From a virus: a stretch of 22,584 nt of DNA. The position numbers and the translations under genes are program-made. The stretch covers positions 1-22,584 of IMG/VR virus record IMGVR_UViG_3300001686_000029; one strand, written 5' to 3'. Below, piece by piece: positions 1 through 15,292 of this stretch. The notes beneath the pieces are model-generated. The model saw only the letters and a program-made list of their open reading frames with translations. It had not been told where the DNA came from and searched no databases. Each line of letters begins with the position of its first letter. Position 1 is the first letter of the stretch.

Positions 1-687
1 GCCGAGGGAAGGGCCGGAGGCGCCGCCGCCGTAGAGGTAGCCGGAGAAGCCGCTGGTGCTGGTGGCGGCGACGCCGGTTGCACGGCGCAGGTTGGCCAGG
101 AACGCGGGGCCTCCGTTGTTGAACTTGAGCGGCGTACTGCTGACCACCTGGCCGTTTCCGCCGTCGCCGCCGGCTATGCGCCAGTCGCCGCCCGTGCCGC
201 CGCTGCCTCCGTTGGAGCCGCCAACGCTACCCAAGGTTGTGGCGGTCGCTCCGCCGCTGCCTGAGCCGCCGACAGCGGTGATGGCGGCGCCGAAGGAACT
301 AGTGCCGCCGTCACCGCCGGCGTTGGCTCCTGCGGTGCCGGCTGCGCCTCCGGCTCCGACCGTTACGGCGACGCTGGCTCCCGTGGCGGACGGGGTGAAC
401 CATCCGCACGCGTATTCGCCGCCTCCGGCACCGGGTGCGCATGCGGCCTGACCGGATCCTGTGGCACCGCATCCGCCGGATCCTCCCCCGCCGCCCTGGA
501 CCTGGACATGCACGAGGATGGCGTTCGCCGGACGGGTCCAGGTGCCGCTCGCGGTGAAGACCTGGACGTCCTTGCCGCCGATGATGATGGCGTCGGCGCC
601 TGTGGCGAGGGTCTGCATGTGCTCCCAGAGCCGGGTGTGGTCCGAGCTCTGGGGGTACGTGATGCCCTTGGAGGTGTTGGCGGTCAT
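1..687 (-). CDS. Glycine-rich tail fibre / adhesin-like protein (partial, C-terminus outside window)
   Basis: The minus frame from an ATG at 687 stays open for 229 codons to the window edge, so this is the N-terminal part of a longer protein. The first 30 or so residues (MTANTSKGITYPQSSDHTRL onward) look like a short helical or attachment segment. A strand-rich stretch with the motif VFTASGTWTRP follows, then long Gly/Ala/Ser-rich runs (GGGGGSGG, GGGEYACG, GGSGGTGGDW). This matches the general plan of phage glycine-rich adhesins, whose polyglycine II-like bundles display receptor-binding loops. The ATG overlaps the TGA of the upstream minor tail gene (ATGA), so translation is probably coupled. 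Position after the baseplate genes supports a receptor-binding role at the tail tip, which is inference. The plus-strand proline-rich reading frames here are its antisense shadow. Confidence 0.78.
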   Translation of the reverse strand, partial: MTANTSKGITYPQSSDHTRLWEHMQTLATGADAIIIGGKDVQVFTASGTWTRPANAILVHVQVQGGGGGSGGCGATGSGQAACAPGAGGGEYACGWFTPSATGASVAVTVGAGGAAGTAGANAGGDGGTSSFGAAITAVGGSGSGGATATTLGSVGGSNGGSGGTGGDWRIAGGDGGNGQVVSSTPLKFNNGGPAFLANLRRATGVAATSTSGFSGYLYGGGASGPSLG

Positions 688-1499
688 GACGAGGTACGCC
701 TCCAGGAGAGCGTGACGGTGAAGGCGGCCGACCAGGAGCCCCGGCCTGCGAGGTGGATGTACGGGTCGTCGGAGCTGACGCTGATTCCGATGCCGCCGCG
801 GGTGCCGTCGATGAGGGCCTGGCCCCAACTGGTGGGCAGGGTGAACGTCGCCGAGGAGCCGATCGTCAGGCTCGGTCCGGACATCGACTCGTTGAGGGTG
901 GGTGCGCCGCCCGGCCGGCTCGTCTGGGTGATGAGGCGCAGTGTCGCGGAGCGGGCTGCGAAGTCCCCGGCCGACAGCCGTTTGATCTTCACGGTGGCTT
1001 TGGTGCAGGTCGCGCCGTTCAAGGTGTGCGGCTTGCTGCCGTAGAACGCGGCGCCCGTGTTGCGGCCGTAGGAGGATCCGCCGTAGCGGCCCTGGAACAG
1101 ATCGAAGCTGTTGGTGGGGTCGCCGTCCGAGCGCCAGGAGCCGTCCCGGTAGCAGGCCGTCGCCGTTGGAACGCACGTCAACGTCCCTGTGGTCACCGTC
1201 GGTTTCGGCGCGGGTGGCGGATCCCCCGTGTCGACGGGGGTCGTGTCCGTCGGCGCGGGCGTGGCCGGCGTCGACGACGGAGCGGCCGGAATGATGTTGA
1301 TGACGTAGTAGGTGCTGTCTAGACGGGCGGCTAGAAGAATGTTGCCGACCGCCACCGTCAGCCCGGTCGCCACCCGGGCAGTGACCGTGATGCCGCCGAC
1401 CTTGACCAGGCAAGCGCCCGATGAGGACGCGCTCTGCGCGATCCCGCGGACGACTCCTATCCCGGCGAGGGAGACGCGGGTATCAGCAAAGTCCGCCAC
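684..1499 (-). CDS. Minor tail protein with OB-like N-terminus and C-terminal beta domain
   Basis: A 271-aa protein starting at a GTG preceded by AGGGGG four bases upstream. Residues about 8-68 form an alternating-strand module resembling the small OB-like domains seen on baseplate accessory proteins. Residues about 70-102 are a Pro/Thr/Ala-rich flexible linker. Residues about 105-271 form a beta-rich domain with Cys109 and Cys116 close together and another Cys at 155. This C-terminal part resembles carbohydrate-binding or DNRLRE-type stalk modules of actinobacterial extracellular proteins, but I cannot assign a family with certainty. It lies between the hub-like gene and the glycine-rich fibre, which fits a tail-tip or fibre-linking role. 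The ATGA overlap with the next gene suggests coupled translation. Confidence 0.72.
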   Translation of the reverse strand: MADFADTRVSLAGIGVVRGIAQSASSSGACLVKVGGITVTARVATGLTVAVGNILLAARLDSTYYVINIIPAAPSSTPATPAPTDTTPVDTGDPPPAPKPTVTTGTLTCVPTATACYRDGSWRSDGDPTNSFDLFQGRYGGSSYGRNTGAAFYGSKPHTLNGATCTKATVKIKRLSAGDFAARSATLRLITQTSRPGGAPTLNESMSGPSLTIGSSATFTLPTSWGQALIDGTRGGIGISVSSDDPYIHLAGRGSWSAAFTVTLSWRRTSS

Positions 1500-1513
1500 G
1501 ACGCCCCCTCTCT

Positions 1514-2602
1514 CTACAGGACGCGCACGGTCAGGGACTGTTCTCCGGGCGAGTAGGGCAGCGACAGCACTTCGATGGCGCAGCGCGCATTCGTCAGGCC
1601 GGCACCAGTGACGGACACGATGTCACCAGGGATGAGGCCCGGATGAGGAACCATCGTGACCTGCAGCTTCCGGAACGCCTGGCGCCGCAACAGCTTCAGT
1701 TGGGCTGCTGCCGCGGTACGGCACTGAGCGACGGTGGTCAGTAGCGACGACTGGTACGGGTAGGGGACGGGCAGCGGGTTGAACGCGCCGCCGTACTGGT
1801 AGGGGCTGGCACCATCCGAGTCGTAGACGACGCCTTGGATCTGGTTGCCGGCCGAGTCCTCCCCTTGCGCGACGACCACGTTGTAGGCGCCGTCGCGGGT
1901 GGTTGATCCCTGCCAGCGCACGACGGTGCCCCCATTGGGATCGTCGGTGATGGCCAGAACGCTACTGCCCGAGTCGCTTACAGGTTCGATGAGCAGGTAT
2001 CCGTCTTCGGTGACTCGGTCGGCTGCACCCCAAGCGCCCTCCACCTCGGTGACGGCCGCGAGCCGGTCGGAGTCCCACTGCATGCCGAGGGGGATGGAAC
2101 GGTCGATGAGGGTGCCGTCGAAGCTGACGGTGAGGGCGGGTTCGACGAGGGCGCGGATGACGGAGGCGAGGGTGTCGGTAGAGGACGGCTGGAACGGCGC
2201 GATCAGGTTCGCTTCGTCGATGAGGGCGAGCAGGCCCACGCAGCTAACGGTGACGGTGTCACCCTCGGTGGACGAGTCGCTGATCAGGAACCAGCCTCTG
2301 TTGATCCACTCCATGGTGCCGCCGCCGATGTCGACGCCGTAGTCGATGCGGAGCATCTGGCCGTAGGCAGCGAGCGGGTGGGCCGGGTCGGTGCCGGGGT
2401 CCCAGTCGAAGCCGCCTTCCCGTCGGGGGATGGTGAGGGTGATCTGTTCGGGGACGGCGAGGGAGCGGTCGCGGGTCTCTGATCCGTCGTGGACGGGAAT
2501 GTTGTCGGCGATGAGTTGGCCGCCGAGCCAGGACTCGGCGCGGATGTCCATGGTGTAGCTGCCCTGTACGACAGCAAGGGCCGTTGTCGACATATCGAGC
2601 AT
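1514..2602 (-). CDS. Minor tail protein, baseplate hub-like (DUF5047-type)
   Basis: A 362-aa protein whose overall pattern resembles the DUF5047 minor tail proteins of actinophages. These occupy the place of the hub (gp27/Tal N-terminal) protein at the tail tip. Residues about 10-115 carry strand-rich segments with SLAVPEQITLTIPRR and the W-containing turn GGFDWDPGTDP. The middle (about 125-190) is helical, and the C-terminus ends with a strand pair around PGLIPGDIVSVTGAG, typical of hub proteins that close with an OB-like fold. The start at 2602 lies one base after the TGA of the Dit-like gene. There is no strong Shine-Dalgarno, so coupling is likely; an alternative ATG is at 2593. The hub role is inferred from order: tape measure, Dit-like protein, this protein, then accessory tail proteins. 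Confidence 0.78.
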   Translation of the reverse strand: MLDMSTTALAVVQGSYTMDIRAESWLGGQLIADNIPVHDGSETRDRSLAVPEQITLTIPRREGGFDWDPGTDPAHPLAAYGQMLRIDYGVDIGGGTMEWINRGWFLISDSSTEGDTVTVSCVGLLALIDEANLIAPFQPSSTDTLASVIRALVEPALTVSFDGTLIDRSIPLGMQWDSDRLAAVTEVEGAWGAADRVTEDGYLLIEPVSDSGSSVLAITDDPNGGTVVRWQGSTTRDGAYNVVVAQGEDSAGNQIQGVVYDSDGASPYQYGGAFNPLPVPYPYQSSLLTTVAQCRTAAAAQLKLLRRQAFRKLQVTMVPHPGLIPGDIVSVTGAGLTNARCAIEVLSLPYSPGEQSLTVRVL

Positions 2603-2603
2603 G

Positions 2604-4073
2604 TCAGGGTCCGAAGTCGTACTGTGCGATGTCGAGCAGCGTGCCGGGGAAGAAGGCGGCGATGTCGGCGAGCGTCGAGAAGTTGTTCGCGATGTCCTGC
2701 AAGGTGAATCCCGCCGCCTCCATCACGTTCGGCCAGTCGTCGGACTTGACGACGTTCAGGGCGAACCACCGGTAGGCGTCGTACCAGTTGGGGTCTTCGC
2801 TGTCGTCGAGCAGCGCATAGGTGCCGTCCAGGCGTGGGAGGCTGGTCTGCTTGCGGACGAGGATGACGCCTTCGGTGGCGTTGTCGAGGAGCTCGTTCAA
2901 CGCGTCGCCGGCATCGTCGGTTTCGGTGCGGACGGTGAGGGTGCCGGAGCGGGCCGATCGCGGTTTGCCGACGACGACGATCCGCCCGTTGATGTTGAAC
3001 TGGGTGGCGTCGCGGTCCCGTTTCCAGCCGAGCGGCGACTCGACCTTCACGGCGGCGCCGACCCCGCGGATCGCGTCCGAGATGACATCGGAACTGACGG
3101 TCGACGTGATGGGTCCGGAGTAGACGGTCCACTGGCTGCCGTTGACGTCGGTGAGGACGGCGGCGTAGTTGAGGCTGACTCCGAACGGCTGCTCGGCGTC
3201 CACGCGCAGCAGGGTGGCCTGCCCGGTCACGTCAATGCCGCTTGCCGCGCGGACCGCAGTCAGGGCCGTGCCGACCTGCCGGTACAGGGTGGCGGTGACG
3301 ATGTCGTCGCCGGTCAGGCCCGTCGCTGACACCAAGTTGCGAGGCGGGAACACGGACTGGGCGGAGGCGTTGATGTCCGAGGACGCCTCGCGGATCCTCA
3401 GTGCGCCGCCCACGCCGGTTCCCGCGACCGACAGTGTTCCCGCGACCGTCGGCGCCTGCGCGCCCGATCCGGATGAGACGGTGCTGTAGGCCTGTACGCT
3501 GCGGGCGCCGTACCCGGTGGTCGAACCAAGGTCGGATGGCTCAGTGACCGCGCCGAACGTGATGCCGCTGGCGGTCACCGTCTCGGCGGAGATGCTCGTC
3601 CCGTTCTGCGGCAGCCCGTATCCGAGCAGCGCGAAGTCACCGGCAGCCCACGTGAGCGCGGTGGATCCCACGATCGAGAATCCAGTTCCGGATGCGGTGT
3701 CGTCACCGAAGGTGGCCGCCCACCTCCAGCCTGTTCCGGCGGTCCGGTCCAGGACCCAGATGCGGCCGCAGATCACCGACCCGGTGGATCCCGAGGGGAT
3801 CGCGGTGGTCGGTGCCGCATCCGAGCCCGCCAGCACCCGCAGGAACCAGGTGAGTCGGCGAGGGCCGGCGCCGGACGCGAAGGTGCCGCCCCCGCCCGAG
3901 AAGCTTCCCGCTGACGTCCAGCCTGAAGGTGTGGAGGGGGCATTGTCGTTGGGGTGCCCGGAGACGACCTGCAGCACAGCAAGTCGCCCTGCGGTGGCTC
4001 CCGCCGGATAGGCCGGGGTGATGGTGTCGGCGGCCCCGGCCAACGACCCGGAGGCGATGAACGAGATCGTCAC
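2604..4073 (-). CDS. Distal tail (Dit)-like minor tail protein with N-terminal beta-sandwich
   Basis: The gene starts at GTG 4073, giving 489 aa. The frame is open further upstream, but that stretch lies inside the tape measure gene. A purine-rich GGAGGAGG site precedes this GTG, which overlaps the tape measure TGA as GTGA. Residues about 1-215 look like a jelly-roll with many small residues and Trp-containing loops (GWTSAG, LTWFLRV, GWRWAATF). This type of module is often an accessory carbohydrate-binding domain on tail proteins. Residues about 220-440 are strand-rich and probably correspond to the Dit/belt core, for example WTVYSGPIT and GRIVVVGKPRSARSGTLTV. The last 35 residues form a helix-rich tail with repeated aromatic and Asp positions. 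Placement directly after the tape measure supports the Dit-like call; the domain assignment is inference without a profile search. Confidence 0.75.
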   Translation of the reverse strand: MTISFIASGSLAGAADTITPAYPAGATAGRLAVLQVVSGHPNDNAPSTPSGWTSAGSFSGGGGTFASGAGPRRLTWFLRVLAGSDAAPTTAIPSGSTGSVICGRIWVLDRTAGTGWRWAATFGDDTASGTGFSIVGSTALTWAAGDFALLGYGLPQNGTSISAETVTASGITFGAVTEPSDLGSTTGYGARSVQAYSTVSSGSGAQAPTVAGTLSVAGTGVGGALRIREASSDINASAQSVFPPRNLVSATGLTGDDIVTATLYRQVGTALTAVRAASGIDVTGQATLLRVDAEQPFGVSLNYAAVLTDVNGSQWTVYSGPITSTVSSDVISDAIRGVGAAVKVESPLGWKRDRDATQFNINGRIVVVGKPRSARSGTLTVRTETDDAGDALNELLDNATEGVILVRKQTSLPRLDGTYALLDDSEDPNWYDAYRWFALNVVKSDDWPNVMEAAGFTLQDIANNFSTLADIAAFFPGTLLDIAQYDFGP

Positions 4074-7000
4074 CCGCCGCTCCTCCTCCCTACCTTCGCC
4101 CGGTGCGCCTGTTCGCGCTCCGACACCTTGACCATGGGCTTGACGGTGCCCTGGATGACCCCGAGGAGTTCCCCGGAGTCGAGGACCAACTGCCCGGTCA
4201 GGTGCTGGGGTTGGCTGTTCTGCTGCTCCAGGGCTGCGGCGAGGCGTTCCCACGTCTCGTCCTGGCCGGAGCGGCTGCGTGCCGCGGTAGGCACGTAGCG
4301 CCGGCGCATGGACACGCCGGTGGCGGTGTCGGCGAGCCGCTGGGCCGCGGAGCCGACGAGGTGGCTGTGCATGTCGATGCCGTGGGCCATGCCGAGGACG
4401 ACGTTCTTTCCGACCTCGTCACGGAACACGCCCGACGGCGACTTGATCTTCAGGGCCTTCTTGATGGCGCTGACCAAGTCCTTGGCGAGCTTGTTGATCT
4501 GCTTCTGCAGATCCTTCTCCTGCGCCTTCAGGCCTGCGAGGAAGCCCTCCCCGGCGTGCTTACCGGAGTCGTACATCATGTCGGCCATGTCCTTGCCGAA
4601 GGACGTCGCCAGCTTCCCGCCAGAGGCGACCAGCTTGTTGAGCTTGTCGATGTCCTGCGTGGTGACGTTCTTCTGGCCGAGGATCGTCGCGAGCTGGCTG
4701 CCCGGACCGGCCTCTGCCAGCTGCGCCAGCAGATCCTTCGACGCGCCGCGCCCCTTCAGAGACTTCGACAGCGACACGAAGCCGCTGGCCGTCTTCTGCT
4801 GGCTGCCCATCTGGGAGATGAGGTCGCCGACCGAAGCGGCCGAGGTCCCGGAGACCGACAGGAAGTCCTTGATGGTGCCAGCCTGGTCGGAGGCGTACTG
4901 GTTGGCTGCGGCGATCTGCTGCTGGATCGATGCCCGCTTGCCCGCGAGGGCCTCCAGCTTGCCGCCGCGACGCTGAATGCTCGCCGCGGTCCGGCTGTAG
5001 CCGGCGTTCAACAGCTTCGTCGCCAGCGACTTGATCGCCGAAGTGATGGCCGCAGCGGTGCCCGTCGACAGCGTCTTGAGAAGACCAGTCGCGATCGTGT
5101 TCGCGATCGACGTCTTCGCCGAACGCTGGGCGTTGCGCAGCGCGATCTCGGCGGCCTTCAACTCCTTCTCTGCCGCCTTCAACCGCTTCTCGGCTGCAGC
5201 CACGCCCTTGTGCCGACGCCTAGCGCTCGCCAGGGCGTCCTTGGCGTCCTCGACGCGCTGCCTGTCGCGGTGGACGCGGTCGGAGGCGTTGAGGATGGTG
5301 CCCGACGCGTAGCCGGGCAGCTTGATGCCGTGCGTCTTGGCCATCCTGACCGAGTCCTCGTGCGAGAAGATGCGGGTCCCCTGCTTGGTGACCTGCATCA
5401 ACTCAGCGCCACGCTCACCGACCCAGGCAGTCTCACCGAACTGCGCGTACCCGCCCTTGGCGTATCCGCCAGGCCGAGTCATCACATTGATCCAGTTGCT
5501 GCCGTACCTGTGCATGGCATAGTTGACGCCCGCATAGATCGAGGCCAGCGGGTCAGTGATGCCCCTGGAGCGGAATGGGCCCGCGTAGGCATTGAAGGTG
5601 CCGGGGATCGTCTGCATGAGGCCCTGCGACGGGTGCCCCGCACGGGCGTTGCTGTCGGTCAGGTTGATCGCGTTCGGGTTGCCGCCGGATTCGATCTGGA
5701 TACGCTTGAGGACCGCGCCCTGTGCGAAGGCTGGCGCTCCGAGCATCTGCAGCACAGTGGCGACGGCACCAGACCAGCGGTTCACGCTGCCGCCCCCGCC
5801 GCCTCCACCGATACCGAGGAAGCCGAGCAGGTCCCCACCCAGTCCGCCGAGCGCCTTCATCGCCTTCCCGGGCAGGGAACTGAGGGAGACAAGTCCCTTC
5901 TTGACGATGTGCGCCAGCGCCTTGGGTAGCGAGCCGAACACCTTCTTCGCGATCGCCGTGCCGCTGGTTTTGGCCATGCCCTTCATCAGGCCAGACACCA
6001 GATGTCCGCCGATCGACATGAAGACGCGCGACGGCGACTTGACGCCGAAGAAACGCTTCACCGCGCCGACGACCGGATCGACGACATGGCCCTTGATCCA
6101 GCCGCCGATGCCCTTCATCGCGACGAGGATCCCCGACTTCAGGCCAGAGATCATGCCCCCGCCCTTACCGGGCAGCCAGCCGCGCGCACGGGCGAACGGG
6201 CCCTTCACGGGGTTGATGACGTGGGAGGTCACCCAGCCGCCGATGCTCTTGCCGACCGAGTAGATGCCCGCCTTGAAGCCGGACACCATTGAGCTGCCCC
6301 TGCCGGGCAGCCAGGACCCGGTGCGCGAGAATGGGGACCTGACCGGGTTCACGATGCGGTCGACGATCCAGCCGCCGATCCCCTTCACGGCGACGACGAT
6401 GCCGGACTTGAGGCCAGCGATCAGATTGCGGCCGATGCCCATGAAGACACGGCTCGGGCTCTTGATGCCGAACAGCGACTTCACACCGTTCGTGATCGGG
6501 TCGACGATGTGGCCCTTCAGCCACGACCCGATGCTCTTCATCACGTTCCAGGCGCCGAACGTCAGGCTCTTCGCGAGGTTGACGCCGATCTGGTAGAGGC
6601 TGAACCGGCCGAACGCCTTGTAGGTGGCCCGGATGAACCGGTTTCCCGCGCCCGGCAGGTGCTCGATCAGTGCCCGTCCGAGCCCGGCGACGATCTCGTT
6701 GCCCTTGCGTGCCAGTTCCAGGCCGAGGACGCCGAGCCGGATCGGGAGGAGCCCGAGCTCGCGAGCGAACCACGCGGCGATCTTCGGGAAGTGGCGGGCG
6801 AAGGCCTCCAGGAACTTGAGGGACATCCTGCCGACGAACTCGTTGATCTTCAGGAAGATGGGTCCGGCAGCCCTGCCCAGCCTCTCCCCGAACGGAATGA
6901 GCTTCTGCCAGGGAATCTTGCTCAGGACCTCGCCTAGCCTGCCCCACGGCACCTTCGAGCCGAGCTTGGCCAGGACCCCGCCCACCTTGCCGAGAGGCAC

Positions 7001-8797
7001 GACGGAGATGACCGCCAGGATGGTGTCCAGCCAGTGCTTCTTCCAGAAGTCCGGGTGCATCATCGGCTCGAACAGGTTGACTGTGAAGCCGATCGCGAAC
7101 GGCAGCGCGATCTTGCCCAGGCTCTTGCCGACATCCACCCAGTCGATCCCGCCGATGGCCTTGCCGAGCTTCGCCGACAGTTCAGCGCCGTGCGAGGCGA
7201 CCCACGCGAATGCCTTGCCCAGGCCCCCGCCGAGGACCGGCCCGAACTTGTCCCAGTTGACGTGCATGATGCCGTCACTGAAGGCGATACGGACCTGCTC
7301 GCCGATCTGTTGAGCCAGCGACTTCGGCGGCTTGACCTTCGCCTTGACCAAGGGTGCAGCGAGCCCGGACCCGCCGTGCGGCGTTGCGAACTTCGACGAG
7401 TCGACGATCCGCCCGTTGGCTGGGGCGACCTGGCCGACGCCGTAGTGCGGCATCGGCGCCAGCGCCGGTCCCTTGGATGCGGCGGCCGTCTTGCTGGAGC
7501 CCAGGTGCGGCGATGGGTCGGCGAAGCCCTTGACCAGGTCGGAGACCGGGTTCTTGGAGCCTCGGAAGCCCTTCAGGAAGTCGTCGATGACACCCTTCGC
7601 GCGGCCGACTGCCCGCTCGATCGGGGTGACGGGAATGATGTTCGCCACCGCCCGGCCGAACCGCGCAGCCTCGGGCATCGCCTTGACGGCAAGGAAGTGC
7701 ACGAAGTCAGTGACGTAGGGCAGCACCTTCGTGCCGATCCGGATGCCCATCACTTCCAGGTTGGAGGTGAGCAGATGCCATTGGGCCTCGGCGGTCTTCC
7801 GCTGCATTTTGACGGCGTCGTCGAACTTGCCGGTGCTGCGGTTGATCTGCTCCTGCTTCTTCTCCAGCACGTCCAGGTTGTTGAGCATGAGGAGGATGCC
7901 GGAGGAGGACCGGCCGCCCCCGAACGCGCGCGACAGCAGCTGGGACTGCTTCGACGCGGACAGACCACTCTTGTCCAGGTGGTCTTTCAGGAGGCCGATC
8001 GCGCCGATCAGACCCTTCGGACCGCGCATCGCGTCCGCGAGATTGAGACCCGTCAGGCCGATCTTCGCCAGCTGCTTCTCGGCGGCATGCGACGGGGCGC
8101 CGAGCAGGCTGAAGGACATCCGCAGCCGGGTGGCCGCGGACGCAGAGTCGATGCCCTCATCCGTCATCAACGCCAACGCGGCCCCGACCTGCTTCATCGA
8201 CAGACCGAACGTCTTCGCCGACGGGAGGATGCCCGTACCGATGGCCGCGTTGAACTGGTCCATCGACATGTTGCCCGCGCCAATGATGGCGTTGACGGTG
8301 GAGACTGCCTCGTGAAACGAGGTGGCGCCCTTGATGCCGGTCCGCCATGCGCCCGCAAGCGCGTTGGTGGTCTCCTCCAGGTTGGCGTGACCGACCGCCG
8401 CAAGGTCGGACGCCTCCTTCAGTGCCTTCATCGCCTGGACGTTGTCCATGCCGACGCTCTTCAGGTGGTACAGCGACTCGGCGAGATGCTGAGGCCCCTG
8501 CTGGGTGGACGTGCCCAGCTTCAGGACCTGGTCGGACAGCGTCTTGACGTCCTTCGCCGTGCCGCCGGCCTGCGTCGAGATGCGGGTCATCTCGCTCTGG
8601 AACTTGACCGCCGCCTTGGTCCCCTCGGCCAGGCCGACCGCCAGACCCACCGCGAGCGCCTCACCGGCGATCTTGGCCGTCTTGGCGAGCTTGCCCATGA
8701 TGCTGTCCGTGCGGGATGCGGCACGACCCACCTGGTGGAATGTGCGGCTGGCCGCGTCGCGGGCGATGAGGGTGTAGATGATGCCGGTGGACGCCAT
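4070..8797 (-). CDS. Tail tape measure protein with lytic transglycosylase domain
   Basis: At 1575 aa this is the largest gene of the window. At roughly 1.5 angstrom per residue it would set a tail of about 235 nm. The N-terminal 250 residues (ARDAASRTFHQVGRAASR, then a hydrophobic A/G/L-rich helix and FQSEMTRISTQAGG) match the TP901-type tape measure core. Long helical and hydrophobic stretches fill residues 330-960. A soluble lytic transglycosylase-like domain lies at about 1010-1115: the likely catalytic Glu is E1036 in IQIESGGNP, followed by QGLMQTIPGTF and the Tyr/Asn motif IYAGVNYAMHRYG. Then come the tape measure-type GERGAEL motif and coiled-coil helices. Four ~46-residue repeats with KSPSRVF-like motifs sit around 779-960, with another KSPS at 1452. 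The ATG follows GAGGGGAGG. The domain probably aids cell-wall penetration during DNA injection. Confidence 0.95.
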   Translation of the reverse strand: MASTGIIYTLIARDAASRTFHQVGRAASRTDSIMGKLAKTAKIAGEALAVGLAVGLAEGTKAAVKFQSEMTRISTQAGGTAKDVKTLSDQVLKLGTSTQQGPQHLAESLYHLKSVGMDNVQAMKALKEASDLAAVGHANLEETTNALAGAWRTGIKGATSFHEAVSTVNAIIGAGNMSMDQFNAAIGTGILPSAKTFGLSMKQVGAALALMTDEGIDSASAATRLRMSFSLLGAPSHAAEKQLAKIGLTGLNLADAMRGPKGLIGAIGLLKDHLDKSGLSASKQSQLLSRAFGGGRSSSGILLMLNNLDVLEKKQEQINRSTGKFDDAVKMQRKTAEAQWHLLTSNLEVMGIRIGTKVLPYVTDFVHFLAVKAMPEAARFGRAVANIIPVTPIERAVGRAKGVIDDFLKGFRGSKNPVSDLVKGFADPSPHLGSSKTAAASKGPALAPMPHYGVGQVAPANGRIVDSSKFATPHGGSGLAAPLVKAKVKPPKSLAQQIGEQVRIAFSDGIMHVNWDKFGPVLGGGLGKAFAWVASHGAELSAKLGKAIGGIDWVDVGKSLGKIALPFAIGFTVNLFEPMMHPDFWKKHWLDTILAVISVVPLGKVGGVLAKLGSKVPWGRLGEVLSKIPWQKLIPFGERLGRAAGPIFLKINEFVGRMSLKFLEAFARHFPKIAAWFARELGLLPIRLGVLGLELARKGNEIVAGLGRALIEHLPGAGNRFIRATYKAFGRFSLYQIGVNLAKSLTFGAWNVMKSIGSWLKGHIVDPITNGVKSLFGIKSPSRVFMGIGRNLIAGLKSGIVVAVKGIGGWIVDRIVNPVRSPFSRTGSWLPGRGSSMVSGFKAGIYSVGKSIGGWVTSHVINPVKGPFARARGWLPGKGGGMISGLKSGILVAMKGIGGWIKGHVVDPVVGAVKRFFGVKSPSRVFMSIGGHLVSGLMKGMAKTSGTAIAKKVFGSLPKALAHIVKKGLVSLSSLPGKAMKALGGLGGDLLGFLGIGGGGGGGSVNRWSGAVATVLQMLGAPAFAQGAVLKRIQIESGGNPNAINLTDSNARAGHPSQGLMQTIPGTFNAYAGPFRSRGITDPLASIYAGVNYAMHRYGSNWINVMTRPGGYAKGGYAQFGETAWVGERGAELMQVTKQGTRIFSHEDSVRMAKTHGIKLPGYASGTILNASDRVHRDRQRVEDAKDALASARRRHKGVAAAEKRLKAAEKELKAAEIALRNAQRSAKTSIANTIATGLLKTLSTGTAAAITSAIKSLATKLLNAGYSRTAASIQRRGGKLEALAGKRASIQQQIAAANQYASDQAGTIKDFLSVSGTSAASVGDLISQMGSQQKTASGFVSLSKSLKGRGASKDLLAQLAEAGPGSQLATILGQKNVTTQDIDKLNKLVASGGKLATSFGKDMADMMYDSGKHAGEGFLAGLKAQEKDLQKQINKLAKDLVSAIKKALKIKSPSGVFRDEVGKNVVLGMAHGIDMHSHLVGSAAQRLADTATGVSMRRRYVPTAARSRSGQDETWERLAAALEQQNSQPQHLTGQLVLDSGELLGVIQGTVKPMVKVSEREQAHRAKVGRRSGG
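5930..6490 (-). repeat. Four degenerate ~46-residue repeats inside the tape measure protein
   Basis: Coding repeats at about residues 770-957. Each unit has a start like KSPSRVFMGIG or GPFARARGWLPG, a glycine-rich helix such as LIAGLKSGI, and then a G-G-W motif (KGIGGWI) followed by VNPV or VDPV. The first and last units keep KSPSRVFM (Lys 779 and Lys 920), and the two middle units have the PF/WLPG variant. This is internal protein duplication, a common tape measure feature, not a separate DNA element. Confidence 0.75.
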
Positions 8798-9864: not shown

Positions 9865-10084
9865 CACTGGCCTCCTCGCCGTACCGGACGAAGATCCGGT
9901 GTGTCGCAGGGCCGCGACCGTCGGACAGTTGCTGTCCGGCGCTGTCCGTCGCGCGAAATGTGACGTATAGGCCGAAGGTCCCGAACTCCAGTCCCCGCAC
10001 AGAACTCGGCTCCAGGCCCAAGGAGTGGCATATGGCCCAAGCGACTGGACGCGGGATCGACTCGGGAACGTCGGGCACGCTCAC
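9836..10084 (-). CDS. Small hypothetical tail-region protein
   Basis: An 82-aa protein from a GTG that overlaps the TGA of the tail tube gene (GTGA), and it overlaps the start of the gp10-like gene. The N-terminus IPRPVAWAICHSLGL looks helical; the second half (TFGLYVTFRATDSAG and GPATHRIFVRYG) looks like strands. I do not recognise a family. Tight packing between two tail genes and normal codon use indicate a real gene. It may act in tail assembly, but nothing in the sequence shows this directly. Confidence 0.7.
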   Translation of the reverse strand: MSVPDVPESIPRPVAWAICHSLGLEPSSVRGLEFGTFGLYVTFRATDSAGQQLSDGRGPATHRIFVRYGEEASDDDRPSGQR

Positions 10085-10560
10085 GGCACGGTGATGTTTT
10101 CGACGGGGATCGACGTGATCGCGAACTGGATGGTGATCTGCGCCGGGTTCTCGACGTCACGCGCCTTCGGCTGCCCGGTGACCTTCACCGGGAACACGTC
10201 GTACTTCAGACCCGCCGTGTCGCCCTCGGGGAAGATGCAGACGAACCCGGCCGTGTCCCGCGGCAGCAGCGTCCGCACGTCGCTCGACGTCGACGACATG
10301 TACAGCGTGATCGAGCTGTCGTCCGCGGTGATACGGCCCGGAATCTTCGACACGAAGCGGCTGCCGAGGTCCGGGGTGTCCTGCTGGTCGCTGTTCGTCG
10401 CGAACCCGGACACGGATGCGATCTCCGCGGTCAGATCGGATCCTGCGTTCAGCTCGGAACGCGTCGGGCTGTTCTTGTTGGCGATGGTCGCGACCCAGTA
10501 GTAGCGGGTCGTACCCGGCGGGATGTACCGGGACGTTGCAGTGATCGGCGTGGCCACCAT
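10081..10560 (-). CDS. Major tail tube protein
   Basis: A 159-aa beta-rich protein with ATG at 10560 and GGAG about nine bases upstream. Features typical of siphoviral tail tube proteins are visible: an opening with aromatic strands (TTRYYWVATIAN), a region near ITADDSSITLYMSS, the segment TAGFVCIFPEGDTAGLKYD, and a closing strand set (VFPVKVTGQPKARDVENPA, then QITIQFAITSIP). It sits upstream of the chaperone pair and tape measure gene, exactly where the tube gene is expected. Copies of this protein stack as hexameric rings around the tape measure protein. Confidence 0.85.
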   Translation of the reverse strand: MVATPITATSRYIPPGTTRYYWVATIANKNSPTRSELNAGSDLTAEIASVSGFATNSDQQDTPDLGSRFVSKIPGRITADDSSITLYMSSTSSDVRTLLPRDTAGFVCIFPEGDTAGLKYDVFPVKVTGQPKARDVENPAQITIQFAITSIPVENITVP

Positions 10561-10563
10561 GGG

Positions 10564-10866
10564 TCAGCTCTCCTCTTCGCTCTTCTTGGCGGCCGTCTTG
10601 GTGCGCGACCGCGCCGGCCTCTCGGTGGATGCGTCCGCCGGCTCCGACTGCTCCGGCTCGTCTGCGGTTTCGGCCTGCTCGGTCGCCTCTTCGGCTGCGG
10701 CAGCCTCGGCAGCCGCCTGCGCCTTCAGCTCGGCGCGCTGCTCCAGTTCCTCAGCGGGAACTTGTTGCCAGCCGGCGTTCGTGTAGTGCGGCATGGCGTC
10801 CTTGGGAACCTCGATCTCCTGCGCCTCCGGCAGGGTCGGGTGCCGCATCACGATGGTGTCGCTCAC
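10564..10866 (-). CDS. Small structural-region protein with Ala/Glu/Lys-rich tail
   Basis: A 100-aa protein starting at GTG 10866, which overlaps the TGA of the preceding gene and has GAGGG four bases upstream. The same frame is open to 11358, but that extension runs under the upstream gene and the opposite-strand membrane gene and is not needed. Residues 1-35 (HPTLPEAQEIEVP, YTNAGWQQVP) form a small strand module of a type common in actinophage head/tail operons. Residues 40-100 are low complexity: Ala/Glu first, then Lys/Arg-rich at the end (RSRTKTAAKKSEEES). Function is unknown; it directly precedes the tail tube gene. Confidence 0.75.
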   Translation of the reverse strand: MSDTIVMRHPTLPEAQEIEVPKDAMPHYTNAGWQQVPAEELEQRAELKAQAAAEAAAAEEATEQAETADEPEQSEPADASTERPARSRTKTAAKKSEEES

Positions 10867-11201
10867 GGGACCCTCACCACCGCGACGCTGACGCTGCTGG
10901 TCACGCTGTAGTTGATGGTCGCCAGCCCGGTCGTCGGGTCCGCGTACAGGCTGGCCGACAGCGGGATGACACCGATGCCCGTGGTCGCAGCCACAGTGAA
11001 GCTGGAGTCGGCGATGGCGAGGCGGCCATCGACCTGGCCGGGCGTGGTCAGCGTGACCGTGCACGCTGCCGCGTTCCCATTCTTCACGTAGAGGAAGGTG
11101 CCGGAGCCGCACGCGGCGGTGTCGCCGTTGGTGGCGGCTACAGGCAGTGAGCCGATGTCGAGCCCGACATTGGGCACGACCTGGGTTACGAGCGCGGTCA
11201 T
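10863..11201 (-). CDS. Small beta-rich structural protein (hypothetical)
   Basis: A 112-aa protein with ATG at 11201 and a strong AGGAGG five bases upstream. It is almost all predicted strands, with a GDTAACGSGTFLYVKNG motif followed by CTVTLTTPGQVDG and a closing ASLYADPTTGLATINY. Similar small beta-sandwich proteins are frequent near the head-tail junction of actinophages, and some are suspected decoration or tail-associated proteins. I cannot assign a function. It is the first minus-strand gene after the region occupied by the reversed membrane protein gene, and its good ribosome site may restart translation there. Confidence 0.75.
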   Translation of the reverse strand: MTALVTQVVPNVGLDIGSLPVAATNGDTAACGSGTFLYVKNGNAAACTVTLTTPGQVDGRLAIADSSFTVAATTGIGVIPLSASLYADPTTGLATINYSVTSSVSVAVVRVP

Positions 11202-11223
11202 CCGCTCCTCCTAGTCGATTTCG

Positions 11224-11252
11224 TTGACCCGGATACCGGGGAATGGGACGAT
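11224..11252 (+). promoter_or_regulatory. Promoter-like sequence for the reversed membrane gene
   Basis: A TTGACC hexamer at 11224-11229 is followed 17 bases later by GACGAT at 11247-11252. The -35 matches the actinobacterial housekeeping consensus well; the -10 is a partial match. Transcription starting near 11259 would leave a short leader before the strong GAGGGGGG ribosome site of the gene at 11279. It is a visual match only. Confidence 0.45.
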
Positions 11253-11278
11253 CCGCGCCACTGGCACGAGGGGGGTCC

Positions 11279-11626
11279 ATGAATCTGAAAGACGCCATGG
11301 AACAGGTGGAACGGGAGCAGCCACACCTGCGCGGCACCGCGAAACTTGAAGCCATCAAGACGCTCCGAGCTCAGCCGGCCGACGCCAAGCCGATCGAACC
11401 TGCGCCTGAGCCGGTCAAGCCGGAAGTCGTGGACTCCACCCGGAAGCCGACCAGTGTCGGCGAGGCGTGGGCCCTCCTGGCTTTGGTTGCCGTGGGGATG
11501 CGGGTGATCCCGTACTTCGTGTGGGGGTCACTCGATGGGGAGCCGCACTGGTACGACGCGCTTCATGCCGTCCTGCTGATCGGCGCCATCATCGAGGTGG
11601 TCTCGGCTCACCGGCGTCGGCCCTAG
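11279..11626 (+). CDS. Small two-helix membrane protein in opposite orientation (moron-like)
   Basis: A 115-aa protein on the plus strand, the only convincing gene on that strand. I chose ATG 11279 because GAGGGGGG lies just upstream; the frame is open from 11243 but lacks such a site there. Residues 1-55 are charged and proline-rich (PADAKPIEPAPEPVKPE), probably cytoplasmic. Two hydrophobic helices follow at about 60-82 (AWALLALVAVGMRVIPYFVW) and 90-108 (ALHAVLLIGAIIEVVS), and an RRRP end. Codon use is as GC3-rich as the neighbours. It has its own promoter-like site. Its TAG interlocks with the TAG of the convergent minus-strand gene (both within CTAG at 11623-11626). Such inserted genes are often expressed in lysogens. 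A superinfection-exclusion or host-envelope role is possible but only inference. Confidence 0.72.
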   Translation: MNLKDAMEQVEREQPHLRGTAKLEAIKTLRAQPADAKPIEPAPEPVKPEVVDSTRKPTSVGEAWALLALVAVGMRVIPYFVWGSLDGEPHWYDALHAVLLIGAIIEVVSAHRRRP

Positions 11627-12090
11627 CGGCCCGTGTAGCTGTCGCAGGAGACTTCGAACACGACCATGGCCTGCGCGCCGTTGGTCGCCAAATCCATCGT
11701 GAGATTGTGCGATGAGATCATTGCCCGCATCACGGAGCCGCCCAGTGAGCGGTTCGCGGCGATCGCAGCGCCCGCCTCGCCCAAGAGTTCATAGGCCCGT
11801 TTTCGGGCCCCGGAGACGTCATCGCTTCCCCTGAGGACGGCCGCGGCGCAGCGGATCGTGAACTGTTCGCGATCGACGGCCCCGCCCATTCCCTCGGTGA
11901 GAAGAGTGGATCCGGCGTCGCTGTCGTCTTCACCACCCGTGTAGCCAACCGACAGGATCTCTTTCACGGTGGCCTGCGAAGCCGACGGGCCATCTCTCAC
12001 GATCACACCGCCGCCCCCCAGTCCGGGCCACTCCGTGAAGGAGGCCACCAGGGCATCCATGGCGGCCGGTAGCCTCGAAGTCCACGCCAT
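11623..12090 (-). CDS. Probable tail terminator / tail completion protein
   Basis: A 155-aa protein whose ATG follows the TAG of the connector gene with no gap. The N-terminal helix (AAMDALVASFTEWPGL) is followed by strands and the loop GYTGGEDDSDAGSTL, then strand FTIRCAAAVLRG, a helix (GARKRAYELLGEAGAAIA) and closing strands (AMVVFEVSCDSYTGR). This helix-strand order resembles tail terminator proteins of the lambda gpU / HK97 gp10-neighbour type. Position directly after the head-tail connector supports the call. Sequence similarity to a named family is not obvious, so the function is inferred from fold pattern and position. Confidence 0.6.
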   Translation of the reverse strand: MAWTSRLPAAMDALVASFTEWPGLGGGGVIVRDGPSASQATVKEILSVGYTGGEDDSDAGSTLLTEGMGGAVDREQFTIRCAAAVLRGSDDVSGARKRAYELLGEAGAAIAANRSLGGSVMRAMISSHNLTMDLATNGAQAMVVFEVSCDSYTGR

Positions 12091-12897
12091 CTACGCCACC
12101 CCCGGCAGCGGAGGATCCAGCAGCTCCAGCGCCCGGCGGGGGATCGCGAAGCTGCGGCCCGGCATGTACGGCTCGCTGTCACCGCCGAGCTGGACACCCA
12201 TCGTGCCGCGCTGCGTCTCCCACAGATGCTGAATGATGATCAGTCCGGCGAGCCGGTAGTCCTCCGGGATGATCGGCAGACCAGCCTGGTAGGTGATTGC
12301 CACGGAGCCCGTCAAAGGAGCCCCCGCAGTGACCGTGACCAGCCCCGTTTCGCCATCAACCCGCAGGTTCCCCACCGTCCATGTGGTGGCGCCATCGGTT
12401 GAAATGGCCGAGGTGAGCGACAGCACCGGGACGTTCCGCAGCAGGACTTGAGTGGTCGCCCCGCCGACGTCGAACCGGTCAGTGACCGTGCGCCGGACCA
12501 CGACCCGCCCCAGTGCCCGCTCCACCGCCCCCGTCGCCGCGCCGATGAAGCCGCGCAACTCGTCATCGTCCGACGTCTCCGCCGCAGCAAAATTCAACTG
12601 GGCACGAGCGTCCGCCAGCGACACGATCCCGACCGGGATGGCGGGCTGCACATCGAAAACGTCCGCATACGCCGTCGTCGGCGCAGAGGTGACGAGCCGC
12701 CACACATGCCGGCCCGCCTGAACGGTCACATAGTCGACGCGCACCTTCCCGACAGTCGCCGGCGTCGGCACGGCAGGGCTGACCGTCGTTCCGTCCGGCA
12801 AAGTGATCGTGAGTGTGGCGGAGGCCGGATTGACGAGAATGCCCGACGCGTCGGCGACATCAACAGCCACCTGGTAGACGCTGCCTAGGTCGATCAC
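12091..12897 (-). CDS. Head-tail connector protein (HK97 gp6-like) with N-terminal Ig-like domain
   Basis: A 268-aa protein from GTG 12897, overlapping the TGA of the upstream gene. Residues about 1-88 form an Ig-like beta-sandwich (LVNPASATLTITLPDGT, then AGRHVWRLVTSAPTTAY). Residues about 92-268 carry the connector core: VSLADARAQLNF, the helix DDDELRGFIGAATGAVERALG, a strand region, and the C-terminal IIPEDYRLAGLIIIQHLWETQ helix. The core matches the gp6-like family that forms the ring below the portal. The extra N-terminal domain may face outward at the neck; this is inference. Confidence 0.85.
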   Translation of the reverse strand: MIDLGSVYQVAVDVADASGILVNPASATLTITLPDGTTVSPAVPTPATVGKVRVDYVTVQAGRHVWRLVTSAPTTAYADVFDVQPAIPVGIVSLADARAQLNFAAAETSDDDELRGFIGAATGAVERALGRVVVRRTVTDRFDVGGATTQVLLRNVPVLSLTSAISTDGATTWTVGNLRVDGETGLVTVTAGAPLTGSVAITYQAGLPIIPEDYRLAGLIIIQHLWETQRGTMGVQLGGDSEPYMPGRSFAIPRRALELLDPPLPGVA

Positions 12898-14153
12898 AAG
12901 GCCCCTCCCCTCGCTGTCGGTACGGCCAACTCACCACGCTGCGCCCGCGCTACCGCAGGATCACCACGCCGCGAACGAGGCCCGGAACCCGCCGCCCCTC
13001 GAGCAGTGCCACGCACCACCACACCAGCGACCTGCCCGGCCGCGGTAAGCCCGGCAGAGACAGCGACGCTGCCCCCGGACGTGGCTCCGATCGCCCCAGC
13101 CGCCGTGCAGGCGACTGTCGCAGTGAAGGCCCCATCGAGGCCGCGGCCGACCGCGCCTGCCGCAGCCAGCACCGCAGTCACGGAGACCGCCGCATTACCG
13201 GTAGCGCCGGTAGCCACCGCGCCAGAGGCGGTCAGCGTCGCCGATACAGCGAGGCCGGTGTCCCCAGATGTGCCACGGGTTCCGTCCGCCGACAGACTGG
13301 CCGTAGAAGACAATGCTGCGGCGCCAGTCGTGGCCCGCACGCCGTCCGCCACCAGACCGGCCGTGGAGGCCAGGCCTGCACTCCCGGACGTGGCCCGGAC
13401 ACCGTCGGCTGTCAGGGCGGCCGTAGAGGTCAGCGCTGCGCCGCCAGCGGTAGCTCGGACGCCATCGGCGGTCAGTCCGGCCAGGGCCGCCAGGCTGGCA
13501 CCGCCAGTCGTGGCTCGCGCGCCAGCAGCGGTCAGGCCCGCGGTGGCCGCGAGCGCTGCACCGCCCGCAGTGGCCCGCAGGCCCGCTGCGGACAGGGTTG
13601 CAGTACCGGACAGCGCCGCGTCGCCCGTAGTGCCGGCAGTGACGTCGGCGCCGGTGAAATCGTCGTATCTGAGCGAGCTGGTGGACTGTGAGCGGACGCC
13701 GACGTTCGTGCCCGACGTGACGGCGGTGTCGGTGACGGTGGCGCGTGCGACACCGTTGACGTAGCCGGTGACCGTGGAGCCGACGACCTGAATTTTCGCG
13801 ACGTCGCCTGCTGCAGCTGCGGCCGCGTAGGTGCTGCCGATGGCGGTGAACGTGCCGCTGACCGCCTTGAAAAGACCCCAGTTCGATCCGTTGTTGCGCC
13901 ACAAGTAACCGTTGGCGAGGGTGCTGTCGCCCCGGCACATCACGCCTTGGCTCACCGCTGTGGTCGCGGCGATGGTGACTTGGGCGTAGTTGTCGCTTGT
14001 GGCCATTGGGGTGGCGGTGCGTATGACGATCGTCGCGCCTGATGCGCCCGGTGAGAGCTGCTGGGAGACGATCGACCAGGTGCCGGACACCTGAACCCAG
14101 GTGGCTCCTGGATCACCGTCGGCCCTGTTGAAGTCGTCGACGAAGGTCGTCAC
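12894..14153 (-). CDS. Lectin-like repeat protein (minor structural protein)
   Basis: A 419-aa protein with GTG at 14153 and GGGGAGGG just upstream. Residues about 1-170 look like a concanavalin/LamG-type beta-sandwich: it opens with FVDDFNRADGDPGATWVQ, followed by NGYLWRNNGSNWGLFK and a closing SSLRYDDFTGAD. Residues about 175-378 are ten 20-residue Ala/Gly/Thr/Leu repeats (consensus around LTADGVRAT). The last 40 residues are Arg/Gly/Ala-rich with short near-repeats. The N-terminal type of domain often binds sugars. The gene sits between capsid-proximal genes and the head-tail connector, so the product may be a capsid or neck appendage rather than a tail fibre, which is inference. The codons of the repeat section look normal for the operon. 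Confidence 0.75.
   Translation of the reverse strand: MTTFVDDFNRADGDPGATWVQVSGTWSIVSQQLSPGASGATIVIRTATPMATSDNYAQVTIAATTAVSQGVMCRGDSTLANGYLWRNNGSNWGLFKAVSGTFTAIGSTYAAAAAAGDVAKIQVVGSTVTGYVNGVARATVTDTAVTSGTNVGVRSQSTSSLRYDDFTGADVTAGTTGDAALSGTATLSAAGLRATAGGAALAATAGLTAAGARATTGGASLAALAGLTADGVRATAGGAALTSTAALTADGVRATSGSAGLASTAGLVADGVRATTGAAALSSTASLSADGTRGTSGDTGLAVSATLTASGAVATGATGNAAVSVTAVLAAAGAVGRGLDGAFTATVACTAAGAIGATSGGSVAVSAGLTAAGQVAGVVVRGTARGAAGSGPRSRRGDPAVARAQRGELAVPTARGGAL
13030..13630 (-). repeat. Ten tandem 60-bp coding repeats (20-residue units)
   Basis: Within the lectin-like gene, near-identical stretches such as GTGGCCCGCA and GTGGCCCGGA recur exactly every 60 bases (for example beginning near 13330, 13390, 13450, 13510 and 13570). 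At protein level each unit reads roughly G-A-A-L-x-x-T-A-x-L-T-A-D-G-V-R-A-T. The central five units are the most alike. The flanking units are degenerate and two are a residue or two longer or shorter, which suggests expansion from the centre by duplication. Confidence 0.9.
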
Positions 14154-14188: not shown

Positions 14189-15292
14189 CTACGGGGCCAG
14201 GGGGACGGCGTCCACGTTGTGTGATCCGCAGTCCAAGCAGGCGAAACGAACCCCTACGCCGTGATTGCCCTTTCGGAGCTGCAGGTTCTCCAGGCGGTTG
14301 TCCTGCTTGTCGCCGTTGATGTGGTGGACCGTCTCGTGCCGGGTCAGGGGCCGCCCGAGCGACCTTGCCATGACCAGCCGGTGCTCAAGTACATAGCCAG
14401 TCACGTTGGCCATAGATGACGCGATCGGATCGTCGGGATCGGCGGTGACAGCCGTGTAGCCGCCCGACGCCACGACTCGCCCACCGCGCCACGCCTTGTC
14501 GCGAAACTCGACTTCGGCTGCGCGCAGGATGCTCCAGATCGACTGCGGGATGCCGTCGAACTCTTTGGCGATCTTGTAGATGCTGTCGCCGGACTCGTAG
14601 CGAGCAACCATCTCGCGCTTCTGGTCCATCGTGTAGCGGGCGCCGACGCGTTCGAGTGATGTTGGGTTAACCCAGGCACCTAGCCGCTGCAGCATGGCTG
14701 TGATCGTGGTCTGGTGACATCCAAACTCGCGCGCGATCTGCGAGGGCTTGATTCCCGCCTTATAGCGAGCGACGATCCTGTCCCGCTCTTCGGGCGTAAA
14801 GCCTTGGAACCGAAGTTCCTGGTAGACGCCATGGCGCTTCAAGACCGTGACCACTGGCCCTCGGCCGCAATCGAGGCTTCGGCGCAAGCTCTCCACGGAC
14901 TCGCGCCCGCAGTAGCGGGTGACCATCTCGGCCTCTTGCTCCGCTGTGAACCCCTGGAAACTACGCGGCTTATGAACCCCACGAGCCTTGAGTGCTCGTC
15001 GCACCGCCGCCGCGTCACTGCGGCCAAATGACAGCGCGATAGCGCGCGCGGATTCTCCAGCCTCATAGCGCCTTACGGCCTCTCGCTGTTGCGCGTCGGA
15101 GAGAACCCAAGCTCCAGGTCGTTCCTTGAGTACGTAGACGCCTTCTTCGCTCAGTACGCGCTGAACGGTAGATCGATTACACCCGTGGGTCTCGCCGATC
15201 GCGGCGATTCCATCACCGCCTTGATACCGGCTGACCATGTCGGCGACCTGCTCGGGGGTGAATTTGCGCGGAGGGCGCCCCTTATTCGTCAC
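14189..15292 (-). CDS. HNH endonuclease with five tandem helix-turn-helix domains
   Basis: A 367-aa protein starting at GTG 15292 with no clear Shine-Dalgarno. Five helix-turn-helix units of about 44 residues occupy 11-55, 63-107, 115-157, 165-208 and 220-263. Each begins with a motif like FTPEQVADMVSRY or FTAEQEAEMVTRY and has the G-x-S-x-x-x-I turn. An HNH_3-type nuclease follows at about 299-339: EHRLVMARSLGRPL, then VHHINGDKQDNRLENLQL with the paired His 323/324, Asn326, Asp328 and the C-terminal Asn residues. A C-L-D-C motif (352/355) with no second pair lies near the end. Free-standing HNH genes of this kind are mobile homing-type nucleases that insert in phage structural operons. The flanking genes appear intact. 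The gene looks slightly less GC-rich than its neighbours, fitting later arrival. Confidence 0.9.
   Translation of the reverse strand: MTNKGRPPRKFTPEQVADMVSRYQGGDGIAAIGETHGCNRSTVQRVLSEEGVYVLKERPGAWVLSDAQQREAVRRYEAGESARAIALSFGRSDAAAVRRALKARGVHKPRSFQGFTAEQEAEMVTRYCGRESVESLRRSLDCGRGPVVTVLKRHGVYQELRFQGFTPEERDRIVARYKAGIKPSQIAREFGCHQTTITAMLQRLGAWVNPTSLERVGARYTMDQKREMVARYESGDSIYKIAKEFDGIPQSIWSILRAAEVEFRDKAWRGGRVVASGGYTAVTADPDDPIASSMANVTGYVLEHRLVMARSLGRPLTRHETVHHINGDKQDNRLENLQLRKGNHGVGVRFACLDCGSHNVDAVPLAP

What the first reader, a model, noticed from the sequence alone, without database searches (positions are those of the whole stretch)
11203..11626. Reversed membrane-protein gene with its own promoter inside the late operon
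All other genes run on the minus strand, but 11279-11626 encodes on the plus strand a 115-aa protein with two hydrophobic helices, a very strong ribosome site and a TTGACC-17-GACGAT promoter-like sequence. This is the pattern of a moron: an added gene that can be expressed in a lysogen when the late operon is silent. A small membrane product suggests exclusion of other phages or a change to the host envelope. When the late operon is on, transcription runs antisense through it, which would switch it off.
Basis: partly seen in the sequence, partly recalled or inferred. Interest (0 to 1): 0.62.

Follow-up and report, generated by a model that had tools for sequence, protein, structure and literature searches.

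The report
Swappable reversed cargo gene in phage
In the block of virus-building genes of an actinobacterial phage there is one small membrane-protein gene pointing the wrong way with its own switch, and relatives carry different cargo genes (or none) at exactly that spot, so it is a plug-in slot that probably arms the host cell while the phage lies dormant.

Summary
11279-11626 (+) is a real gene. Its codon usage is about 6 SD above shuffles. Orthologues from IMG/VR share 52-63% identity, with dN/dS 0.17-0.52. They sit in reverse at the same spot, between a tail-terminator-like gene and a phrog_16194 tail gene.

The spot is a moron hotspot. I found at least eight alternative reversed cargo types: a helical N-domain plus two TM helices (window), the TM part alone, N-domain plus a soluble domain, that soluble domain alone, N-domain plus Cys-rich/TM, two other membrane proteins, and a lipoprotein. 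The N-domain is exchanged between otherwise unrelated partners. Other phages have the spot empty. The TTGACC-N17-GACGAT element is invariant in six t1/t2/t4 loci whose flanking genes are near saturation at third positions. It is decayed in four empty spots but kept in stubs that have lost the cargo. Two unrelated cargos start exactly where a leaderless transcript would.

Lysogenic expression, silencing by late transcription and phage exclusion remain inference. Tab, Tai and Tha are precedents for the architecture. No significant protein match was found in GenBank phages, GTDB genomes, PDB, Pfam, PHROGs or PADLOC. New variant of a known kind.

The parts
11224..11229 (+). -35 element TTGACC of the cargo promoter
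   Evidence: invariant in 6 of 6 t1/t2/t4 loci while the spacer varies; Streptomyces -35 core is TGAC (PMC6742748)
11247..11252 (+). -10 element GACGAT (17-nt spacer), in the invariant block GGGACGATCCG
   Evidence: invariant in t1/t2/t4; same hexamer in t3, t5 and t8; GACCAT in t7, GATAGT in distant t1; lost in empty spots L013, L015, L025, L102
11268..11275 (+). ribosome-binding site GAGGGGGG
   Evidence: sequence; a G-rich SD-like stretch is also present before t2, t4, t7, t8 and distant t1 starts
11279..11626 (+). cargo gene (type t1), 115-aa protein: helical N-domain plus two-helix membrane hairpin
   Evidence: codon usage, dN/dS, orthologues at the same spot
11279..11377 (+). N-domain (aa 1-33), exchanged between cargo types t1, t7 and t8
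   Evidence: BLASTP with L104 2e-10; L219/L221; two helices in the model, pLDDT about 75
11450..11623 (+). membrane hairpin (aa 58-115), shared with t2 where it stands alone
   Evidence: 43% identity to L006, E 2e-18
11623..11626 (.). CTAG shared by the stop codons of the cargo gene and the convergent late gene
   Evidence: sequence; the same 4-bp tail-to-tail overlap in t1, t3, t4, t5 and t7 loci
11623..12090 (-). upstream late gene A (phrog_22863; tail terminator by synteny with Chymera and Yara), border of the spot
10863..11201 (-). downstream late gene B (phrog_16194 tail protein), other border of the spot
11205..11213 (-). ribosome-binding site TAGGAGGAG of gene B
   Evidence: sequence

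Best explanation
The locus is a moron slot: a fixed insertion point between a tail-terminator-like gene and a tail gene, in which a single small cargo gene stands reversed to the late operon behind its own vegetative-type promoter. In the window the cargo is a two-helix membrane protein with a helical, probably cytoplasmic N-domain. Shown: real gene, shared promoter, exchangeable cargo, modular shuffling, temperate relatives. Inferred: the host RNA polymerase transcribes it in the lysogen while the late operon is silent; the product sits in the inner membrane and blocks an incoming phage (DNA entry, or a sensor that depolarises the cell); after induction, late transcription through the slot lowers its expression so that it does not harm the phage's own growth.
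For: Variable occupancy at one spot: gaps of 37-56 bp (empty), about 90 bp (stub), 247-421 bp (occupied). Eight cargo types, always on the opposite strand, ending within 16 bp of the stop of gene A. Promoter elements invariant where the flanking genes keep only 45-74% third-position identity, decayed in four empty spots. t3 and t5, unrelated proteins, both have ATG six nt after GACGAT without a Shine-Dalgarno sequence, as for leaderless mRNA, about 20% of Streptomyces genes (PMC6742748). Purifying selection on t1. Domain swapping t1/t7/t4/t8. Most cargo types are predicted membrane proteins and t6 is a lipoprotein with LALAGC, classes known for prophage exclusion (TP-J34 Ltp, PMC3952083; P22 SieA, PMC10883804). 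Relatives carry integrases. Architecture precedents: Tab on the minus strand with its own promoter inside the late operon; TaiEcA reduced when Q drives the late operon.
Against: No transcript or phenotype data. No anti-phage family matched (PADLOC). No cognate inhibitor gene is seen next to the cargo; A and B are also present where the spot is empty. GACGAT is a weak -10 (3 of 6 against TATAAT). Stubs keep a perfect promoter without a cargo gene, which protein function alone does not explain. The window record has no lysogeny gene, so lysogeny is inferred from relatives.
Confidence: 0.66

Rival explanations
1. The promoter, not the protein, is what is kept: it makes an antisense RNA into the tail-terminator gene that damps leaky late expression in the lysogen, and cargo genes ride on it.
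For: Seven stub loci keep an intact promoter (one mismatch in one of them) with the gene deleted; the stub reading frame is not conserved (L002 differs from L010/L012); cargo stops overlap the A stop and no terminator lies between, so transcripts should run antisense into A.
Against: The cargo proteins are under purifying selection; the promoter decays in empty spots L013, L015, L025 and L102; stubs could be recent or spread by recombination.
Confidence: 0.12
2. The cargo acts in lytic growth (holin-like, envelope or receptor function) and is off in the lysogen, perhaps because the phage repressor covers the -10 region.
For: The block GGACGATCCG also occurs in the repressor-side intergenic region of G001, G003 and G004, where GACG-NNN-CGTC dyads cluster; t8 resembles an actinobacterial holin family weakly (E 0.006, below cut-off).
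Against: G005 and G002 carry the same promoter block without that repressor; the right half-site is incomplete in the cargo promoter; the 10-mer also occurs by chance elsewhere in most of the 11 genomes; the reversed orientation is poor for a gene needed while the late operon is running.
Confidence: 0.15
3. The conserved element is mainly a recombination seam (boundary sequence) through which cargo genes and flanks are exchanged, and its promoter look is secondary.
For: Flanks are mosaic at the spot: L002 and L012 share B (86% third-position identity) but not A (53%); L019 and L010 likewise. The 37-bp t3 block is nearly identical across divergent phages.
Against: In t1/t2/t4 only the two elements are invariant while the 15-16 nt between them varies, as expected of a promoter, not of a homology patch; leaderless start spacing in two unrelated cargos.
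Confidence: 0.06
4. Spurious ORF in GC-rich DNA.
For: Long chance ORFs are common here.
Against: Codon usage, dN/dS and codon-position bias, conserved position in divergent phages.
Confidence: 0.01

Closest known systems
Tab / anti-Tab of Pseudomonas phage JBD26 (PMC10884400)
   Same: Small moron reversed inside the late operon with its own promoter, always at one place between structural-module genes, made by the prophage.
   Different: Located between terminase genes, unrelated sequence, acts on tail assembly, and paired with an inhibitor gene in the late operon; no such partner is seen here.
TaiEcA / AtiEcA of phage phi80 (PMC11364771)
   Same: Noncontiguous operon: reversed gene interrupting the late operon, lowered when the late operon is on.
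   Different: Placed near the packaging module, cognate counter-defence gene present, unrelated sequence.
Tha / Ith of Staphylococcus phages (PMC11087260)
   Same: Opposed transcription couples defence to the life cycle.
   Different: The defence gene is in the cI operon and its inhibitor is the reversed gene.
Sbash gp30/gp31 and cluster N mycobacteriophage defence genes (PMC6426596)
   Same: Lysogenically expressed, variable cargo genes in actinobacterial phages, with membrane proteins among them.
   Different: Located in the central, attachment-site-proximal region, not inside the head-tail operon; unrelated sequences.
Superinfection exclusion membrane proteins and lipoproteins (P22 SieA PMC10883804; TP-J34 Ltp PMC3952083)
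   Same: Small membrane proteins or lipoproteins of prophages; cargo t6 here is a small lipoprotein.
   Different: No sequence similarity detected; function untested.

Membership tests
Phage moron | Extra gene between two genes that are adjacent in relatives | tested here: met
   Gap 37-56 bp in L013, L015, L020, L023, L025, L102 and 12-66 bp in named phages Chymera, Yara, phiSASD1 and Madraxi, against 421 bp here
Phage moron | Own promoter | tested here: met
   Conserved TTGAC-N17-GACGAT by comparison; no transcript mapped
Phage moron | Own terminator | tested here: not met
   No terminator-like site near the cargo; its stop overlaps the stop of gene A
Phage moron | Base composition differs from neighbours | tested here: not met
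   GC 0.65-0.66, like the neighbours; GC3 0.80 against 0.74-0.91
Phage moron | Expressed from the repressed prophage | not testable with these tools
   Needs RNA from a lysogen
Noncontiguous-operon defence (Tab/Tai type) | Reversed gene with own promoter inside the late operon | tested here: met
Noncontiguous-operon defence (Tab/Tai type) | Cognate inhibitor gene on the late strand accompanying the cargo | tested here: not met
   A and B occur equally where the spot is empty; no extra late-strand gene was seen at the spot
Noncontiguous-operon defence (Tab/Tai type) | Late transcription lowers cargo expression | not testable with these tools
   Needs strand-specific RNA-seq
Superinfection-exclusion membrane protein | Membrane location | tested here: met
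   Two hydrophobic helices predicted; prediction only
Superinfection-exclusion membrane protein | Sequence or fold match to a known exclusion family | tested here: not met
   Pfam, PHROGs, PADLOC, PDB sequence and Foldseek gave nothing significant
Superinfection-exclusion membrane protein | Protects cells from another phage | not testable with these tools
   Needs a plating assay

The most novel reading that the evidence does not exclude
A plug-and-play defence slot of actinobacterial prophages: one conserved reversed promoter inside the head-tail operon drives interchangeable single-gene effectors built by shuffling a short helical adaptor domain with membrane hairpin, soluble or Cys-rich/TM modules. 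The adaptor recognises one common target, and the antisense arrangement works as a two-way switch that also quiets the tail genes in the lysogen, which would explain stubs that keep the promoter without a gene.
Probability: 0.2. Interest if true: 0.8.

Novelty: new variant of a known kind. Interest (0 to 1): 0.6.

Why it matters
Reversed morons inside late operons are now known to hide anti-phage systems (Tab, Tai). This gives an actinobacterial case with a fixed spot, a nearly invariant promoter and at least eight undescribed cargo types, so a search for the promoter and spot alone becomes a way to fish for unknown prophage defence genes. The stubs that keep a perfect promoter offer a natural test of whether antisense transcription into a tail gene has a value of its own.

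Tried and rejected
Direct search with the window protein alone: no hit in IMG/VR, GTDB or GenBank phages; only the flanks and later the N-domain alignment reached relatives. A GTDB search with an alignment found nothing.

RNA hairpin between A and B: inverted repeats between the two promoter elements looked conserved, but folding z-scores average -0.06 on either strand; rejected.

Repressor operator over the -10 region: dyads GACG-NNN-CGTC sit beside the repressor in four relatives, and three of these share GGACGATCCG with the cargo promoter, but two promoter-bearing phages lack that repressor, and the 10-mer is common elsewhere in these genomes; kept as a weak lead only.

phrog_1322 'moron, membrane protein': E 0.055 for L017 only; not used. 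Fold searches of the low-confidence model gave nothing. Model of L104 too poor to use (pLDDT 50).

Full report
WHAT IS THERE. The window is a 22,584-bp virus record. Its genes run leftward on the minus strand: small and large terminase, portal, protease, major capsid protein, head-tail adaptor (12091-12897), gene A (11623-12090, phrog_22863), gene B (10863-11201, phrog_16194 tail protein), major tail protein (10081-10560), tape measure and distal tail genes (terminase, portal, protease and tape measure named from position and sequence, terminase). Between A and B lies a 421-bp gap, and in it, on the plus strand, the ORF 11279-11626.

IS IT A GENE. Length alone is no evidence in GC-rich DNA. 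The codon score of the frame is 0.326, against -0.226 +/- 0.088 for shuffled sequence and at most 0.07 in the other five frames; the late genes score 0.16-0.65. Orthologues were reached only after an alignment of the N-domain was built: L215, L217, L218 and L220, besides L017, all at the same spot. Pairwise dN/dS with the window is 0.17-0.52. Substitutions by codon position against L215 are 28/23/62, p = 6e-6. Against L017 alone the bias is weak (p = 0.04-0.13 depending on the alignment).

THE SPOT IS A HOTSPOT. Relatives of A and B show gaps of 37-56 bp (L013, L015, L020, L023, L025, L102), about 90 bp (stubs L002, L010, L012, L106, and L011, L057, L059 from the pattern search) or 247-421 bp. 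In named phages Chymera, Yara, phiSASD1 and Madraxi the spot is empty. Occupied spots hold one reversed gene: t1 (window, L017, L215, L217, L218, L220; N-domain plus two TM); t2 (L006, L037, L038; TM part alone, 43% identical to the window, E 2e-18); t3 (L003, L004, L009, L018, L019, shorter form L097; MTVLKWWF..., one or two TM); t4 (L026; soluble); t5 (L095, L099, L101; three TM); t6 (L100; lipoprotein, LALAGC); t7 (L104; N-domain plus the soluble domain of t4, E 2e-10 and 2e-17); t8 (L219, L221; N-domain, two Cys-x2-Cys pairs and TM segments). The cargo genes end within about 16 bp of the stop codon of A, many sharing the four bases CTAG.

THE PROMOTER. In t1, t2 and t4 loci TTGACC and GGGACGATCCG are invariant (6 of 6) while the 15-16 nt between them differ, although A and B keep only 45-74% third-position identity. 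In t3 and its stubs a 37-bp block is identical except for one base. In empty spots L013, L015, L025 and L102 the element is recognisable but decayed. In t3 and t5, two unrelated proteins, the ATG follows GACGAT by six bases and no Shine-Dalgarno sequence is present, which fits leaderless mRNA; t1, t2, t4, t7 and t8 have G-rich Shine-Dalgarno sequences. Streptomyces promoters show TGAC and TANNNT, and about 20% of genes are leaderless (PMC6742748); HrdB promoters conserve A at -11 and T at -7 (PMC6344877), both met by GACGAT. The more distant t1 loci have GATAGT in the same place and no clear TTGAC; t6 does not share the element.

LIFESTYLE. Tyrosine recombinase matches over the cut-off occur in the relatives of L003, L006, L026, L019 and L015, and serine recombinase matches in those of L038, L019 and L015. 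G001, G003 and G004 have a cassette of integrase (phrog_1, 3e-41 for G001), a 145-148-aa protein and a 142-144-aa repressor (phrog_12831, best 7e-6) next to a divergent intergenic region, and G006 has the same repressor. So the lineage is temperate; the window fragment itself does not cover that region.

MECHANISM. Shown: a selected gene, a shared promoter, exchangeable cargo, domain shuffling. Inferred: the gene is on in the lysogen and weakened by late transcription, as measured for TaiEcA of phi80 and in line with Tab of JBD26 (own promoter, minus strand); membrane proteins and a lipoprotein as cargo point to exclusion at the envelope. Unlike Tab and Tai, no inhibitor gene accompanies the cargo. 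Transcripts from the cargo promoter should run antisense into gene A, since no terminator is found; this and the stubs keep an antisense-RNA role open.

LIMITS. No expression data; the structure model is of low confidence (pLDDT 66); the host is taken to be actinobacterial, probably Streptomyces-like, from the nearest named phages, not proven.

Noticed in passing
window 14189-15292 (-): 367-aa protein with repeated helix-turn-helix motifs and a C-terminal HNH endonuclease domain inside the structural operon; lowest codon score of the late genes (0.163) and GC3 0.74, so probably a recent homing-type insertion.
   Followed up: partly
window 12894-14153 (-): 419-aa protein with about a dozen degenerate repeats of the kind 'GGAALTSTAALTADGVRAT', no Pfam match; possibly a capsid decoration or fibre-like protein.
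   Followed up: no
G001 8251-8740, G003 44124-44462, G004 6600-7162, G006 51200-51700: Intergenic dyads GACG-NNN-CGTC (fuller form GTAGACGNNNCGTCTAC) clustered beside a 142-144-aa repressor of the phrog_12831 type: likely immunity operators of this phage group.
   Followed up: partly
L002, L010, L011, L012, L057, L059, L106: Stub alleles: intact cargo promoter and first codons of t3, rest of the gene deleted, with mosaic flanks; the promoter stays nearly identical without the gene.
   Followed up: partly
G001 1-6600 and 63200-69908: The record repeats its start at its end (same gene calls), as expected of a circular or circularly permuted genome of about 63 kb; the integrase-repressor cassette lies near this junction.
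   Followed up: no
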